Assembly: GCF_000373365.1 (NCBI RefSeq)
Contig: NZ_KB891241.1
Span: 248,001-312,000, forward strand
Source: Parafrankia discariae
GTDB taxonomy: Bacteria; Actinomycetota; Actinomycetes; Frankiales; Frankiaceae
Length of the DNA stretch: 64,000 nucleotides
Reading direction: 5' to 3'
The notes under the pieces were generated by a model. That model saw nothing but the letters and a program-made list of their open reading frames with translations, was not told the DNA's origin and searched no databases. This document shows positions 12,581 to 20,295 of the stretch, piece by piece. Each line of letters begins with the position of its first letter. Positions within the stretch are counted from its first letter, which is position 1. Position numbers and translations under genes: made by a program.

Positions 12581-13133
12581 TTTATGAATTTGTAATTCCT
12601 GGTTAGCGTTGGCCACGAGCACTCCGTAATGTCCCTAACCGGCTGTTCGAAGCAATTCGGAGCCAGGGTGGGATTGGGGTGATGGTGCCGGGTGGCTGGC
12701 GCCGAAGTTGTTGCGGTGCAGGCGATTCCGTTGGCGGGTCCCGGTGCCGGGAACGGGGGGTCGGTGCTGTGGTGGACCATGTTCGCGGAGCCTTTTCTCG
12801 ATCTTTCCTGCCGGCTGGGAGCCGGCCGGTGCCGCGCTGGCGCCAAGGAGGGTCAGTGGTCGCCCTCGCTCGCTGCCTGTGGCCCACCCACCCAGCTGAC
12901 CGGCACATGTTCCCGGAGCTTCGTGGGTGTCCCGGCCTGGGAGGGGGCGCGGAGTCTTGACCGCGCTCGGTGATCGGGCGGGGCGCCTAGGCCAGTGGGG
13001 CGAGATGCGTAGACGGGCCGAGAACACCTGGTTCGAACGGTCGAAAGAAGCTGCGACTGAGCAGCAGGAGAACTCGTCGGAGCGTTCGGAACCCGGCGTT
13101 CCGGATACTCAGGAGATTCGTGCGGGAGGCAAT

Positions 13134-13505
13134 ATGAACAGCGTCGACATCGCTCTCAAAGAAGCGATGGAGATCGATGGTGCGACCGGGGTCGCGCTCG
13201 TCGACTTCACCAGTGGGATGACGCTCGGCACGCTGGGCAGCAGCCACACTCTGGACCTGGAGGTGGCGGCGGCCGGTAACACAGAGGTGATCCGGGCGAA
13301 GATCCGTACCATGGACAGCCTGGGCCTGGCGGACTCCATCGAGGACATCCTGATCACCCTGGGCCGCCAGTACCACCTGATCCGCCTGCTGCAGAGCCAC
13401 TCCGGGCGGGGTCTGTTCCTCTACCTGGTGCTCGACAAGTCGCGGGCGAACCTCGCGCTGTCCCGGCACCGCCTGCGCACCATCGAGGCACAGCTCGACC
13501 TCTGA
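13134..13505 (+). CDS. Roadblock/LC7-like small protein
   Basis: A 123-residue protein starting MNSVDIALKEAMEIDGA. The alternation of a first helix, a GVALVDFTSGMTLG strand pair, a helix with EVIRAKIRTMDSLGL, and a long amphipathic stretch ending LSRHRLRTIEAQLDL resembles the roadblock/longin fold used as a GTPase-partner module in bacteria. The ATG at 13134 is fixed by GGGAGG five bases upstream; an in-frame extension from 12927 has no such support. No GTPase gene lies next to it, so its partner is unknown. The fold assignment is from pattern only. Confidence 0.6.
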   Translation: MNSVDIALKEAMEIDGATGVALVDFTSGMTLGTLGSSHTLDLEVAAAGNTEVIRAKIRTMDSLGLADSIEDILITLGRQYHLIRLLQSHSGRGLFLYLVLDKSRANLALSRHRLRTIEAQLDL

Positions 13506-14751: not shown

Positions 14752-14826
14752 AACCTCTTCGGGCGCCGCTCGTTCCACTTTGGTGAGCTGGGCCTATCAA
14801 GTGGGCCGGGCGACGCGGGGGACCGG

Positions 14827-15804
14827 ATGGCGGGGGACCGGATGGTGGAGCTGGTGTCCGGCGCGAACCTGAACCTGCCCGGCCCCGTGGTTTCGTTGTC
14901 ACTCCCTGGCCCCTTCGACCTGACCGCCCTGGTCCTCGGGCCGGACGGCCAGGTCTCCGGCGACCGGGACATGATCTTCTACAACCAGCCGACCGGCCCC
15001 GGCGTCACGTTGCGCGGCACCGCCGGCACCGCCGGTGTCTCGTCGATCGAGCTGAACCTGGACGCCCTGCGCTCCGGCGGCGAGCGGGTCGTCCTGGTCG
15101 CCAGCCCGGCCGACGGCTCCACCCCCTTCGGCCGGCTGCCGCCGCCGCTGGCCACCCTGCGCGCCGCCGGCCGCACGATCGCGACGCTGCGCCCACCCGG
15201 CCTCTCGGCGCAGACGGCTCTGCAACTCGCCGAGTTCTACCGCCGGGACCGACGATGGAAGATCCGTGCGCTCGGCCTTGGCTACGCGGACGGCCTCGCC
15301 GGTCTCGCCCGCGACTTCGGCGTCGACGTCGACGCTGGCGCTGGCGACAATTCCGGCGCTGGTGTCAATTCTGGTGCCGATGCCGTGCCGGCTCGGAATG
15401 TCTCCCGCGCGCCCGGCGGCGGGCACCTCGCCGAGGTCGTGGCGCTGACGAACGCGGAACGGGCCCGCGGCGGTCTGGCCGCGCTGGTCACCGAGCCGCG
15501 GCTGGCCGCGGCGGCGCACCGCCACAGCGCCGACATGGCGACCCGGGGATTCTTCGCCCACGACACCCCGGACGGCATCACCGTGGCCGACCGGGTGCTG
15601 GCCGCCGGCTACTCCTACGCCGTGGTGGCCGAGAACATCGCGGCCGGCCAGCGCACCGCAGCCGAGGTCGTCGCCGGCTGGATGAACAGCCCGCCGCACC
15701 GGGCGAACATCCTGCGCCCCGAGGTCCGCCAGATCGGCGTGGCCCGCTTCGACGGCGGCGAGTACGGCGTCTACTGGACCCAGGTCTTCGGCACGCCCCG
15801 CTGA
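14827..15804 (+). CDS. TerD-like domain fused to a CAP/SCP domain
   Basis: A 325-residue two-domain protein. Residues about 6-165 look like a TerD (tellurium/calcium stress) domain: LVSGANLNLPG, DLTALVLGPDGQV, IFYNQPTGPG, IELNLDAL and FYRRDRRWKIRALGLGYADG. A 25-residue Gly/Asn/Asp linker follows. Residues about 195-325 are a CAP domain of the bacterial YkwD type: LTNAERARGGL, HRHSADMATRGFFAHDTPDG, VAENIAAG, WMNSPPHRANIL and YWTQVFG. No signal peptide is seen, which is strange because CAP domains usually act outside the cell whereas TerD is cytoplasmic. The start may be the ATG at 14842. Function unknown; the domain calls are fairly firm. Confidence 0.75.
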   Translation: MAGDRMVELVSGANLNLPGPVVSLSLPGPFDLTALVLGPDGQVSGDRDMIFYNQPTGPGVTLRGTAGTAGVSSIELNLDALRSGGERVVLVASPADGSTPFGRLPPPLATLRAAGRTIATLRPPGLSAQTALQLAEFYRRDRRWKIRALGLGYADGLAGLARDFGVDVDAGAGDNSGAGVNSGADAVPARNVSRAPGGGHLAEVVALTNAERARGGLAALVTEPRLAAAAHRHSADMATRGFFAHDTPDGITVADRVLAAGYSYAVVAENIAAGQRTAAEVVAGWMNSPPHRANILRPEVRQIGVARFDGGEYGVYWTQVFGTPR

Positions 15805-16318
15805 CCGCCGTGACCCGCCCCCGCGGCGGTTCCGCGGAACACGGGCGGCCCTCCGGCCCGCCTGTCCGCCGGCGCACGCACACCGGGCCCGCCGGCCGCT
15901 CCACATACCGCCCCGCCGGCCGGTCCACCGGCGGGTGCCCAGGGTGACCGCCACTTTGGTGCGCCCCCGTGCGGGTGGAATTGGGGTGGCCGTTCATTGC
16001 CGTCGGTGGCCGGTGCGAAACGTGACGATTCGCCGGCGGCCGGTGTGACGTAGGGGTCGCCGGGCACCGGCCGAGGGCTGAATGCGCTGGTCCGGGCCCC
16101 TCGAAGCGGAGCGGCGGCTACCTGGAGGTGGCGAATTGTGGCTGGTTTGCTTGTCCGGTGACCATTCGCGACCTTAAATTCGCTCCGGTCACCGTGATCA
16201 GTATTCTCGCAGTGATCGTATGGTTCCGCGTATCGTCTCGCGGGCCTCCGGGGGTCCTCCGTGGCCATCCCGAGCGCAGGCGGGCACCGGTCACCGGTGC
16301 CATGTGAGGTGGGCGGCC
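15805..16318. other. 514-bp intergenic region upstream of the Liv transporter
   Basis: No gene is supported. The stretch holds several short GC hairpins just after the TerD-CAP stop (for example CCGCGG at 15821 and 15832). Further on, a long-spaced inverted repeat GGTGACC/GGTCACC (16157-16163 and 16187-16193) surrounds an A/T-rich core. The latter is a plausible promoter/operator for the transporter gene. Confidence 0.5.
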
Positions 16319-19300
16319 GTGGACGACGTCATGGGCTACGCCCTGTTGAGCCTGGGTGTCGGGGCGCTGTACGCGCTCGTCGCCACCGGCGTGGTCGTGA
16401 TCCAGCGCGGGGCCGGCGTGCTGAACATGGCGCAGGGCGCGCTGCTGGCGTGGGCCGCGTACGCGTTCCACGGGGCGCGTGAGGCGTGGGGCCTGCCGGC
16501 GGCGCCGGCGGCGGTGCTCGCCGTCGGGTCGACGATGGCCGTCGGCCTGGTGTTCCACCAGCTGGTGCTCCGCCCGATGCGCCAGGCCACCGCCGTGCTG
16601 CGGCTGATGGCCACGCTCGGGCTGCTGATCGTCATCCAGTCGCTGCTCACCCTGATGTACGGCGGGGACGTCCGGCGTTCACCCACCGTGCTGCCGACCG
16701 GCAAGGTGATCCTGTTCGACACCGCGGTCGGGGTGGACGTCCTGGTGCGGCTCGCCGTGGTGGCCGCGGTCGTGGCCGGGCTGTGGGCGGTGTTCCGGTT
16801 CACCGCGCTCGGGCTCGCGGCGACCGCGGTGACCGAGAACCCGCGCGCCGCCGCGTCGCTGGGCTGGTCGCCGGACGCGGTGGCGAGCTGGGCGTGGCTG
16901 GCCGGGTCGGCACTGGCGGGGCTGGGCGGTGTGCTGCTCGCGCCGCTGCAGAATCCGTTGTCGGCCGGTGGTCTGATGCTGCTGATCGTCCCGGGGCTGG
17001 CGGTGGCGCTGGTCGCCCGGTTCCGGTCGCTGCCGGCGGTGCTGGCCGGGGCGCTGGCGCTGGGTGTCGTGGAGCTGGAGACCCAGGTCCACCTGATCGC
17101 GGACCATCCGGCCTGGCGTGGTGTCGACCGGGCCGTCCCGCTGGCGGTGATCGTGTTCTACCTGGCGGTGCGCGGGCGGGGCATCCCCGACCGCGGCCAT
17201 GTCGCCGAGCGCCATCCGGTGCTCGGCAGCGGCCGGGTGCACTGGCGGGCGCTGGGGATCACGGTGGCCGGCGCGCTTGTCGCCGTGTGGTGGCTGCTGC
17301 CGGCGTCCTGGGTGAACGCGCTGAACGCGAACGCCATCTGGGCGACGATCATCCTGTCGGTCGTGGTGCTGGTCGGGTTCACCGGGCAGCTCTCGCTGGC
17401 GCAGCTCGCCTTCTCCGGGATCGCGGCCCTGATCGCCGGCCGGCTGGTCGCCACCCGGGGCTGGCCACTGGAGGCGGCTCTCGTGGTGGGCGTCGCCGGG
17501 ACGGCCGTCGTCGGCGTGCTGTTCGCGCTGCCGGCGCTGCGCACCCGGGGCCTGCAACTGGCCGTCGTGACCCTCGGCCTCGGCGCCGCCGTGGACGCGC
17601 TGCTGTTCCAGCGCGGGTACCACTCGCCGGCGGCGAGCCCGCTCAGTGCCCTCTTCGGTGATCTCGGCACGCTGGAGGGGACGGAGGTCGGCGACGCGAC
17701 CCTGTTCGGGATCAGCCTGGACAAGGTGACCCACCCGCGCGGGTTCGCGACCCTGTCGCTGCTCGCGTTCGTCCTGCTCGGGCTGGCGGTGGCGAACCTG
17801 CGGCGGGGGCGCGCGGGGCGGCGGCTGATCGCCGTCCGGACGAACGAGCGGGCCGCGGCGGCGCTGGGCATCAGCGTGGTCGGGGCGAAGCTGTACGCCT
17901 TCGCGCTGTCCGCCGCGATCGCCGGCTTCGGGGGAGTGCTGTACGCGTTCTACACCTACGGCGAGCGCGGCAACATCGACTACGGCGGCGGCCTGTTCTC
18001 GCCGTTCGCGTCCATTCTGCTGATCGCCTACGCGGTCGTCGGGGGAGTCGGCTGGATCAGCGGTTCCTTCGCCGGCGCGACGATGGCCGCCGAGGCGCTG
18101 GCGACGAGGGCCGGGGCCTGGGTGGGCAGCGTCCTCGGCCAGCTCGGGCTGCTGCTCCGCCTGCTCTTCGCCGCGGTCGCCGGTTCGCTGGGCCTCGCGG
18201 TCGGCCGCGCCGTCGTGCCGGCACCCGGGCCGGCGGCGGGTGCCGCGGGGCCGGGCGCGCCCGGCCCCGCGGTGCCGTCCGGTGCGGCGGCGGGTGCCGC
18301 GGGGCCGTCGGTCGCGGCGCGGGGCGCGTGGCCGCGGCGGGCGGTGCCGTGGGTGGTCACCGCGGCCTTCGCCGGAGCCGCCTTCGCGGCCGGGGGCCGG
18401 GTCGTCGACTGGCTGGCCGACCTCGACCGCTACGTCCCGCTGATCGGCGGCCTGGTGCTGGTCACGGTTCTCTCCCGGTCCGGGGGCGGTATGGCGCCGG
18501 AGAACGCCCGCACCGCCCGCCGGATCCTGGAGCGCCACTTCCCGAAGGCCGTCGAGCGGCGGATGGCCGCCGACACGGCCCGGGTCGTCCGCCTGCTCGG
18601 CCCCGTTCCGGCCCTCGAACCGGTCGCCACCGCACCGGCGGGCCCGGCGGGCCCGCCGGCCGGACCGCCGGTGAGCCCGGCGACAGGCCCAGGGACGGGA
18701 CCGGCGACGGGACCGATCCGCCGGGTCGGCACGGTCGCCTACCCGGGCCGGCCGGCCACCCTGTCGGTGTGGGGACTGTCGGTGAGCTTCGGGTCGGTGG
18801 CCGCGGTCAGCTCGGTCGACCTGCGGGTCGAGCCGGGACGGGTCGTCGGCGTCATCGGTCCGAACGGCGCGGGCAAGACGACGGTGATTGACGCGATCAC
18901 CGGCTACACCTCGTCGGTGTCGCGGTCCCTGATGCTCGGCGACACCCGGCTCGACCGGCTGCCGGCCCACCTGCGCGCCCGCGCCGGGATCAGCCGGTCG
19001 TTCCAGAACCTGGAGCTCTTCGAGGATCTCACGGTCATCGAGAACATCCAGGCCGCCTGTGACCCGCGGGACGCCCGCGCCTACGCCGGTGACCTGGTGC
19101 TGCCCCGCTCCCGGCCGCTGCCCGCCGCGGCCGCCGCCGCCGTGGAGGCCTTCGGCCTGCGCGACGACCTGCTCCGCACGGTCTCGGAGCTCTCCTACGG
19201 CCGCCGCCGGCTGCTGGCGATCGCCCGCGCGGTGGCGACCTGCCCATCCGTGCTGCTGCTGGACGAGCCGTGCGCGGGACTCGACGAGAACGAGAGCGCC

Positions 19301-19555
19301 GGGGTGGCCACGTTGCTGCGGCGGCTGGCGGACAACTGGGGGCTGGGGATCCTGCTCAACGAGCATGACATGGACGTGGTGATGCGGATCTGCGACCAGG
19401 TGGTCGTCCTCGACGGCGGCGAGGTGATCGCGCAGGGCACCCCGGGCCAGGTCCGGGTCGACCCACGGGTGCGCCGGGCCTACCTGGGTGACGCCACCGG
19501 CACCGGCCGCGTGGCAGCGGCGGGCACGGCCGGCTCGACCGGCTCGGCCGGCCGG
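16319..19555 (+). CDS. Fused branched-chain-amino-acid-type ABC importer: LivH + LivM permeases + LivG ATPase
   Basis: One open frame (stop near 19558) encodes about 1079 residues that normally occur as three proteins. Residues 1-285 are a LivH permease (YALVATGVVVIQRGAGVLNMAQG). Residues about 330-630 are a LivM permease (GFTGQLSLAQLAFSGIAALIAGRL). A linker region of about 200 residues has extra hydrophobic segments and a helical stretch (RRILERHFPKAVERRM). The C-terminus is a LivG-type ATPase with Walker A GPNGAGKT at 847-854, a divergent signature LSYGRRR near 958, and Walker B LLLDEP near 979. The GTG at 16319 has GAGGTGGG upstream. It overlaps livF by GTGA. The substrate may be amino acids, urea or another small molecule. 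Confidence 0.88.
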
Positions 19556-20295
19556 TGAGCCCGAACCCGCCGGTCCGCGGTGTCCCGCGGCCCCGGACGG
19601 GGCCCGTCGCGCCGGTGCTCAGCGCGCGCGGGCTGTCGGCCGGCTACGGCGAGGGCGGCCCGGTGGTCCGGGGGCTCGACCTGGACCTGCGGTCGGGGGA
19701 GGTGGTCACCCTGCTCGGGCCGAACGGCGCCGGCAAGACGACGACGCTGCTCGCGCTGAGCGGGGCGTTGCCGCCCAGCGGCGGCACCGTCTCGTGGAAC
19801 GGCCGGGTGACGACCGCCCCGCTGCACCAGCGGGCCCGGGCCGGCCTGGCCTTCGTCCCCGAGGACCGGTCCGTGATCATGGACCTGACCGTGCGGGAGA
19901 ACCTGCGGCTCGGCCGCGCCGACACCGAGGTCGCCCTGGAGACGTTCCCCGAGCTCGCCGGGCATCTCGACCGGCGGGCGGGGCTGCTCTCCGGCGGCCA
20001 GCAGCAGATGGTCGCGCTCGCCCGGGCGCTCGCCCGCCGGCCGGCGGCGCTGCTCGCCGACGAGCTCTCGCTCGGTCTCGCACCCCAGCTGGTCGAACGG
20101 CTGCTCGGTGCCGTCCGGGCCGCGGCCGACGGCGGCCTCGCCGTGCTGCTCGTCGAGCAGCACGTGCGCAGCGCGCTGGCGGTGGCCGACCGGGTGATCG
20201 TCCTGCGGCACGGCCAGGTCGCGTGGGCGGGCCCGGCGGCGGGGGTGCGGGCCGATCCCGACCTGCTCCTGGGCGCGTACCTCCCCCTGGCCTGA
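19555..20295 (+). CDS. livF: Branched-chain-type ABC importer ATPase (LivF family)
   Basis: A 246-residue second ATPase of the HAAT-type importer, forming the nucleotide-binding pair with the ATPase domain of the upstream fusion. Walker A is GPNGAGKT, the signature is LLSGGQQQM, and Walker B is modified to ALLADELS, with Ala in place of a hydrophobic residue but Asp-Glu kept. The H-loop lies in VLLVEQHVRSAL, a LivF hallmark. A 20-residue Pro/Arg extension precedes the domain. Its GTG start overlaps the stop of the fused gene, so expression is probably coupled. It is convergent with the substrate-binding protein gene. Confidence 0.9.
   Translation: MSPNPPVRGVPRPRTGPVAPVLSARGLSAGYGEGGPVVRGLDLDLRSGEVVTLLGPNGAGKTTTLLALSGALPPSGGTVSWNGRVTTAPLHQRARAGLAFVPEDRSVIMDLTVRENLRLGRADTEVALETFPELAGHLDRRAGLLSGGQQQMVALARALARRPAALLADELSLGLAPQLVERLLGAVRAAADGGLAVLLVEQHVRSALAVADRVIVLRHGQVAWAGPAAGVRADPDLLLGAYLPLA

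What the first reader, a model, noticed from the sequence alone, without database searches (positions are those of the whole stretch)
14827..15804. TerD domain fused to a CAP domain, without a signal peptide
TerD-like (stress, calcium-binding) and CAP/YkwD-like domains rarely share a polypeptide, and CAP domains usually work outside the cell. Absence of a signal peptide means a cytoplasmic CAP protein or non-classical export.
Basis: partly seen in the sequence, partly recalled or inferred. Interest (0 to 1): 0.55.

Follow-up and report, generated by a model that had tools for sequence, protein, structure and literature searches.

The report
Cytoplasmic TerD–CAP fusion of actinomycetes
This gene joins a bacterial stress-protein domain (TerD) to a CAP domain of a kind that is normally secreted, and the protein family appears to stay inside the cell, which makes it an unusual but widespread protein of soil and plant-associated actinomycetes.

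Summary
ORF 14827-15804 (+) holds TerD (PF02342, E 7e-18), a flexible linker and CAP (PF00188, E 2e-22), with no earlier start and no signal peptide. Orthologues place the start at ATG 14842.

It is neither rare nor an artefact: TerD and CAP share one open frame in 26 of 35 Frankiaceae genomes and 79 of the 80 best named loci, 66 of them Streptomyces, under purifying selection.

Location, tested indirectly: 55 of 55 stand-alone CAPs examined carry a conserved cysteine pair; 0 of 97 distinct fused CAPs, and 0 of 12 more, do. Fused CAPs form one clade. This favours a cytoplasmic CAP, by one old change rather than many.

'Calcium-binding' is not supported for the window protein: of five acidic calcium-ligand positions it keeps one. 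In 29 of 66 Streptomyces loci an AIM24 gene lies downstream on the same strand; in the window's genome AIM24 is fused to another TerD.

Best guess: a TerD adaptor carrying a metal/lipid-binding CAP to the inner membrane face, like eukaryotic GAPR-1. Biochemistry is unproven.

The parts
14842..15804 (+). TerD-CAP fusion gene, orthologue-supported start ATG 14842 (320 aa plus stop)
   Evidence: ATG at this place in 21 of 21 rows (the window's own copy included)
14827..14829 (+). alternative upstream ATG (adds MAGDR); first start after the in-frame stop
14815..14845 (+). gcgggggaccggatgg twice, 15 bases apart, which duplicates the likely ribosome-binding site and start
   Evidence: read directly; ribosome-binding role inferred
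14842..15333 (+). TerD domain, residues 1-164; most of the canonical calcium site missing
15337..15417 (+). disordered, fast-evolving linker, residues 166-192
   Evidence: pLDDT under 50; residues 165-193 dN/dS 0.46 in the closest pair, 1.24 in one and saturated in three others
15421..15801 (+). CAP (SCP/PR-1/YkwD-like) domain, residues 194-320; lacks the cysteine pair of stand-alone actinobacterial CAPs
15559..15561 (+). His240, conserved CAP histidine (96 of 97 distinct fusions)
15631..15633 (+). Glu264 of the AENIA motif (97 of 97 fusions)
15664..15666 (+). Glu275 (E in 91, D in 6 of 97 fusions; variable in stand-alone CAPs, E in 13 of 44)
15697..15699 (+). His286, conserved CAP histidine (96 of 97 fusions)

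Best explanation
An intracellular CAP protein. The N-terminal TerD domain, without the usual calcium loop, acts as a docking module that brings the CAP domain, on a flexible tether, to TerD/AIM24-type assemblies at the inner face of the cytoplasmic membrane. The CAP domain, with its His/Glu residues intact, binds a divalent metal and/or an acidic lipid there, much as the cytosolic eukaryotic CAP protein GAPR-1 does at Golgi membranes, and so helps hold or remodel the membrane under stress. Shown by sequence: the two domains, their conservation as one protein, no leader upstream, absence of the stand-alone CAPs' cysteine pair, reduced TerD calcium site, retained CAP His/Glu residues, and AIM24 next door in many Streptomyces. 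Inferred: cytoplasmic location (likely), docking role of TerD (plausible). By analogy only: metal/lipid binding and membrane role.
For: No start or leader upstream. Cysteine pair: 41 of 41 stand-alone CAPs against 0 of 97 distinct fusions; second set 12 of 12 against 0 of 12; of six doubtful CAP copies read afterwards, the two that proved stand-alone have it and the four that are halves of cut or broken fusions do not. Fused CAPs are one clade, support 98/89, in an 86-row tree with 15 Streptomyces fusions drawn at random. In the same genome, TerD domains lacking the loop Asp are joined to a second TerD (L004), AIM24 (L006) and DUF2510-HNH nuclease (L008); an HNH nuclease points to the cytoplasm (inference). 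AIM24 starts 49-115 bases downstream, same strand, in 26 of 66 Streptomyces loci and about 1 kb downstream in 3 more. Purifying selection: dN/dS 0.22-0.40 for TerD, 0.12-0.35 for CAP, five orthologue comparisons. His240, Glu264, His286 nearly invariant in fusions. GAPR-1: cytosolic leaflet of Golgi, affinity for negatively charged lipids, zinc at two conserved His (PMC6900432, passages). Aim24: inner-membrane protein affecting cardiolipin (PMC3975624, abstract).
Against: No localisation, binding or knock-out data. Leader detection was crude hydropathy taken anywhere before the domain in the open frame, not a trained predictor, and the two groups overlap: fusions reach 1.94 (in TerD strands), 6 of 41 stand-alone CAPs lie at or under 1.94. 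No AIM24 lies near the Frankiaceae copies, nor in any of the 14 non-Streptomyces named loci, so the AIM24 link may hold only in Streptomyces. Streptomyces proteins carry an additional divergent CAP (21 of 34 rows of A2: 20 Streptomyces and Wenjunlia), so their role may differ from that of the window protein.
Confidence: 0.5

Rival explanations
1. Exported without a signal peptide (lysis, vesicles or a dedicated secretion system), so that CAP works outside the cell as other bacterial CAPs do.
For: The stand-alone CAPs examined carry a hydrophobic stretch before the domain (41 of 41, maximum 1.54-3.11; 12 of 12), so the domain's ordinary place in these bacteria seems to be outside.
Against: The cysteine pair of all 55 stand-alone CAPs examined is missing from the fusions; TerD relatives in the same genome carry a nuclease and AIM24. 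I recognised no secretion genes among the 16 neighbour clusters printed, but only three of those were run through Pfam, so this is weak.
Confidence: 0.12
2. A cytoplasmic TerD stress protein in which the CAP domain is a passenger or an oligomerisation module, with no metal or lipid function of its own.
For: In Streptomyces the first of two CAP domains has drifted from the consensus (GEHLVS for GENIA), which shows CAPs can become structural parts.
Against: In the C-terminal CAP, His240 and His286 are kept in 96, and Glu264 in 97, of 97 sequences (one row, L100, is the divergent first CAP of a locus), and CAP dN/dS is as low as that of TerD.
Confidence: 0.25
3. A calcium-regulated protein: TerD senses calcium and gates the CAP domain.
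For: Canonical TerD binds calcium at two sites (PMC8779313, passage). The Asp matching Asp42 is kept in 48 of 48 rows, and the column of Glu89 is acidic in 28 of 48 rows, though Ser in the window.
Against: Asp40 is Pro or Gly in 48 of 48 rows, Asp78 falls in a gap in 48 of 48, Asp88 is missing in 46 of 48; three stand-alone TerDs in the same genome keep all of these.
Confidence: 0.1
4. Gene-model or assembly artefact joining two neighbouring genes.
For: Some relatives show interrupted or contig-split copies (G007, G018, G024; G008, G025, G027, G033).
Against: One open frame in 26 of 35 Frankiaceae genomes and 79 of 80 named loci from many assemblies.
Confidence: 0.01

Closest known systems
TerD family (PF02342): K. 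pneumoniae TerD 2kxt, S. coelicolor TerD 3ibz, SCO6318 2qz7, SAV2460 2qng
   Same: Profile match over cut-off; same fold, Z 14.5-19.1 over 148-152 residues.
   Different: Calcium site mostly missing; fused to CAP; no other TerD in the window.
Bacterial YkwD-like CAP proteins (PF00188; TIGR02909; DalA NF052539; solved: B. anthracis 4ifa)
   Same: Profile and fold, 4ifa Z 22.0 over 123 residues, 32% identity; His/Glu residues kept.
   Different: No leader and no cysteine pair; below the curated cut-offs of TIGR02909 (107.8 vs 171) and DalA (69.7 vs 200).
GAPR-1/GLIPR2, the eukaryotic cytosolic CAP protein (1smb, 4aiw, 5vhg)
   Same: CAP fold, Z 14.7-15.5 over 116 residues; a CAP on the cytosolic side of membranes (PMC6900432, passage).
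   Different: 16-18% identity; no TerD domain (recalled); lipid and zinc binding of the window protein untested.
TerD-AIM24 gene neighbourhoods (Anantharaman, Iyer & Aravind 2012, known here only as cited in PMC5822837)
   Same: AIM24 downstream of TerD-CAP in 29 of 66 Streptomyces loci and fused to a TerD in the window's genome.
   Different: The passage seen does not mention a CAP domain; the original paper is not held.

Membership tests
TerD domain family (PF02342) | profile score above Pfam cut-off | tested here: met
   65.1 bits vs 25.3; 34 of 34 rows of A2 match at E 0.001
TerD domain family (PF02342) | TerD fold | tested here: met
   3ibz Z 19.1, rmsd 2.2, 151 residues
TerD domain family (PF02342) | two-site calcium loop (positions 29, 40-42, 78, 79, 82, 84, 88, 89 of K. 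pneumoniae TerD, PMC8779313 passage) | tested here: not met
   Of the acidic positions 40, 42, 78, 88, 89 the window keeps only 42 (numbering). All 48 fused rows: 40 none, 42 48, 78 none, 88 2, 89 acidic in 28. Positions 29, 41, 79, 82, 84 not scored one by one; calcium binding itself not tested
Ter stress operon | ter genes next to it | tested here: inconclusive
   the only TerD match in the window's stretch is this gene; TerB and TerC were not searched
CAP superfamily (PF00188) | profile score above Pfam cut-off | tested here: met
   80.9 bits vs 21.1
CAP superfamily (PF00188) | alpha-beta-alpha CAP fold | tested here: met
   4ifa Z 22.0, rmsd 1.2, 123 residues
CAP superfamily (PF00188) | conserved His/Glu site residues | tested here: met
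   His240, Glu264, Glu275, His286; that two of them match the GAPR-1 zinc histidines is inferred from the motifs
Exported actinobacterial CAP proteins | N-terminal signal or membrane anchor | tested here: not met
   no start before 14827 and no K/R before residue 42; by crude hydropathy only, no trained predictor
Exported actinobacterial CAP proteins | conserved cysteine pair (81 residues apart; 80 in L178) | tested here: not met
   0 of 97 distinct fusions vs 41 of 41 stand-alone; 0 of 12 vs 12 of 12; 2 more stand-alone with it
YkwD spore family TIGR02909 | curated cut-off | tested here: not met
   107.8 bits vs 171
Known anti-phage defence proteins (PADLOC 2023) | profile match | tested here: not met
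   0 families at E 0.01
GAPR-1-like cytosolic CAP (functional analogue) | binds acidic lipid or zinc on the cytosolic side | not testable with these tools
   needs purified protein

The most novel reading that the evidence does not exclude
Actinomycetes have a lineage of CAP proteins that works inside the cell: a CAP domain that lost secretion and its cysteine pair once, was joined to a TerD adaptor without the calcium loop, and forms with AIM24 an inner-leaflet membrane-maintenance complex. It would be one of a set of interchangeable 'TerD adaptor plus payload' proteins (CAP, AIM24, HNH nuclease, a second TerD) in one genome.
Probability: 0.3. Interest if true: 0.65.

Novelty: new variant of a known kind. 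Interest (0 to 1): 0.45.

Why it matters
What CAP domains do is still argued over, and most are studied as secreted proteins. A cytoplasmic bacterial CAP tied to the TerD/AIM24 stress network offers a simple genetic setting (Streptomyces knock-outs) to ask what the CAP fold does when it is not a secreted effector, and what TerD domains do when they lack the usual calcium site.

Tried and rejected
Upstream start giving a leader: rejected. Two Streptomyces fusions (L180, L186) flagged a hydrophobic stretch in the stop-to-stop frame; it lies 445 and 287 codons before the TerD start, outside the gene. Calcium sensing: disfavoured on sequence, though the Glu89 column is acidic in 28 of 48 rows. Defence system: no PADLOC match. 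Partner genes in Frankiaceae: amidohydrolase, branched-chain amino-acid transporter, solute-binding protein and LysR genes recur nearby, in varying order and strand; I read them as inherited neighbourhood. Structure hit 9a6r_B (GLPD-SCP2, Z 21.5) hinted that TerD-type proteins bind partners; the one paper search for it found 0 papers, so it is not used. Literature, all ten searches, read as listings only: 'TerD' with 'CAP domain' 0 papers; 'AIM24' with 'TerD' 1; a five-term search at two terms 149 papers, 20 listed, none of those with a TerD count; intracellular or bacterial CAP, 15 listed, none on CAP-domain proteins by title. So I saw no description of the fusion in those searches of the open-licence library; subscription papers, including Anantharaman 2012, were not seen. 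Papers opened: PMC8779313, PMC6900432 and PMC5822837 (passages), PMC3975624 (abstract).

Rows and limits. Before the cysteine count I dropped L025, L026 and L032, which the script called 'CAP only' but which are cut or frame-broken fusions. The stand-alone set was chosen by hand from the cut-off list (39 places, 34 in Frankiaceae and 5 in other families) plus two of the own genome. I had left out five further CAP hits as suspected fusion halves and later checked them, with G024 and G006: G015:C43 and G020:C788 are stand-alone and have the pair (for G015 the part before the domain is cut by the contig end); G008:C259, G025:C28, G018 and G024 are cut or frame-broken fusions without it; G006 is fused, without it. 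So G020 shows no fusion. The second set of 12 was also hand-picked from the cut-off list. One of the 97 fused rows, L100, is the divergent first CAP. In the class survey (393 genomes, at most four candidates scored per genome, list cut off) 12 full-length matches outside Frankiaceae were listed, all in genus g24, of 39 g24 genomes with any match counted by eye; both are lower bounds. In one search some loci end soon after the fusion, so AIM24 may be undercounted; gaps there run between alignment ends.

Full report
What is there. The ORF at 14827-15804 (+) encodes TerD (PF02342) followed by CAP (PF00188), both well above Pfam's cut-offs. A stop closes the frame upstream and no ATG/GTG/TTG lies before 14827. 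Two ATGs 15 bases apart sit in a short tandem repeat. In 21 of 21 rows read (20 orthologues and the window's own copy) an ATG stands two codons before [E/D]LV, which puts the likely start at 14842 and the protein at 320 residues. The N-terminus MVELVSGANLNLP belongs to the TerD domain in the model, has no positive charge before residue 42, and does not look like a leader.

Where the window lies. The match in genome G002 (same genus) has the contig length and position of Parafrankia colletiae Cc1.17; likewise other genomes of family f1 match named Frankia and Pseudofrankia contigs. So the organism is most likely a Parafrankia and f1 is Frankiaceae; this is inference.

How common it is. In 35 Frankiaceae genomes (own plus 34) TerD and CAP share one open frame in 26 (G006 and G014 through). 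The other nine: G007 has a stop inside; G018 and G024 are frame-broken; G008, G025, G027 and G033 are cut by contig ends; G020 shows only a stand-alone CAP; G034 gave only weaker matches. Among named genomes, the best 80 loci hold 79 fusions: 66 Streptomyces, 7 Frankiaceae, 3 Pseudonocardia, and one each of Embleya, Yinghuangia and Wenjunlia (in L100 the CAP found in frame is the first, divergent one). One copy on a Streptomyces fungicidicus replicon is annotated 'CAP domain-containing protein'. In a sample of 393 genomes of the class, full-length matches outside Frankiaceae were listed for 12 genomes, all of genus g24, which is Streptomyces by identity of one contig and position with S. aureus NRRL B-1941; this is a lower bound. 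All 34 members of alignment A2 match both Pfam families.

Selection. Between the window and five orthologues, dN/dS is 0.22-0.40 for TerD and 0.12-0.35 for CAP; for the linker it is 0.46 in the closest pair, 1.24 in one, and saturated in three. AlphaFold gives two confident domains and a disordered linker.

Inside or outside. I compared the fused CAPs with stand-alone CAPs. Forty-one stand-alone CAPs (2 own, 34 Frankiaceae, 5 other families) all have a hydrophobic stretch before the domain in the open frame (17-residue Kyte-Doolittle maximum 1.54-3.11), many with a lipobox-like motif. At two alignment columns 41 of 41 have Cys and 0 of 97 distinct fusions do; the spacing is 81 residues, 80 in L178. 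A second set, 9 Streptomyces and 3 other stand-alone CAPs against 12 Streptomyces fusions, gave 12 of 12 and 0 of 12. CAP hits that I had set aside by suspicion were then read: the two that are stand-alone have the pair, the four cut or broken fusions do not. Hydropathy alone does not separate the groups: fusions reach 1.94, in TerD strands, and 6 of 41 stand-alone CAPs lie at or below that. In an 86-row tree (45 fusions, 41 stand-alone) the fused CAPs are one side of a branch with support 98/89, so loss of the pair is best read as one old event kept since. Many fusions (67 of 97; none of 44 rows classed as CAP only) have a single cysteine in GENIAC-GQ beside the conserved glutamate. Together this favours a reducing, cytoplasmic location. 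It is not proof.

The TerD half. K. pneumoniae TerD is reported to bind calcium at residues 40, 41, 42, 78, 79, 89 and 29, 82, 84, 88 (PMC8779313, passage). The own genome's three stand-alone TerDs keep the acidic ones. In 48 fused rows (two genomes occur twice) position 40 is Pro or Gly in all, 42 is Asp in all, 78 is a gap in all, 88 is Asp in 2, and 89 is acidic in 28, but Ser in the window. The same genome has other TerD domains that lack Asp78 and are joined by long linkers to a second TerD (L004), AIM24 (L006) and DUF2510-HNH (L008); a further one, L005, has a long C-terminal extension without a Pfam match. I read these as adaptor TerD plus interchangeable payload. That reading rests on one genome and was not surveyed.

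Neighbours. No other TerD lies in the window and no AIM24 on its contig. In the Frankiaceae the AIM24 genes lie on other contigs or hundreds of kilobases away. Around the Frankiaceae copies the recurrent genes are an amidohydrolase, a fused branched-chain amino-acid transporter, a solute-binding protein and others. In Streptomyces, AIM24 (PF01987 for one example) begins 49-115 bases after the fusion on the same strand in 26 of 66 loci, and about 1 kb after it in 3 more; in the 14 other named loci it was not found. PMC5822837 (passage) reports, citing Anantharaman 2012, that AIM24 genes often neighbour TerD genes and that the proteins may interact. Of 34 rows of A2, 21 (20 Streptomyces and Wenjunlia) carry two CAP domains, the first divergent.

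Mechanism. Shown: architecture, conservation, no leader, no cysteine pair, reduced calcium site, CAP His/Glu residues kept, AIM24 downstream in many Streptomyces. Inferred: cytoplasmic location, docking by TerD. [quoted passage not shown] and a membrane role for AIM24, as mitochondrial Aim24 affects inner-membrane architecture and cardiolipin (PMC3975624, abstract).

Verdict. Observation confirmed; interpretation partly supported. A real, conserved variant combining two known domain families, of which I saw no description in the listings of the ten paper searches. The main gain is sequence evidence that the fused clade is intracellular.

Noticed in passing
window 16220-19558 (+): Branched-chain amino-acid ABC transporter with two permease stretches and the ATPase in one 1112-aa polypeptide; its gene cluster occurs in 18 of 25 Frankiaceae loci, some genomes counted twice, with a 1040-codon ORF in L049.
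   Followed up: partly
window 12927-13505 (+): ORF without a Pfam match, with look-alikes (by eye) in a cluster found in 9 Frankiaceae loci; it looks like a Roadblock/LC7-type protein (recalled, not tested).
   Followed up: no
L004, L006, L008 (own genome): Other TerD fusions in the same genome: TerD-TerD, TerD-AIM24 and TerD-DUF2510-HNH; the N-terminal TerD of each lacks the loop Asp.
   Followed up: partly
G000 C162:73261-75469: Three AIM24 domains in a row in the own genome, the first fused to TerD.
   Followed up: no
Streptomyces loci, e.g. L074 10001-11485: TerD-CAP-CAP: a second, divergent CAP domain (GEHLVS in place of GENIA) between TerD and the C-terminal CAP.
   Followed up: partly
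fused CAP domains, column of window residue Ala268: Single cysteine in the GENIAC motif beside the conserved glutamate in 67 of 97 fusions and in none of 44 rows classed as CAP only.
   Followed up: no
Streptomyces loci, e.g. L079 7391-9895, L080 11259-12563: A beta-lactamase-like serine hydrolase (PF00144 in L079) near the fusion, on its strand in 25 of 25 placed cases.
   Followed up: no
Streptomyces loci, e.g. L101 12321-13442: A TPR-repeat protein close downstream of the fusion, on its strand in 12 of 12 placed cases.
   Followed up: no
G007 C156, G018 C29, G024 C264: Interrupted copies of the fusion (internal stop or broken frame) in draft Frankiaceae genomes.
   Followed up: partly
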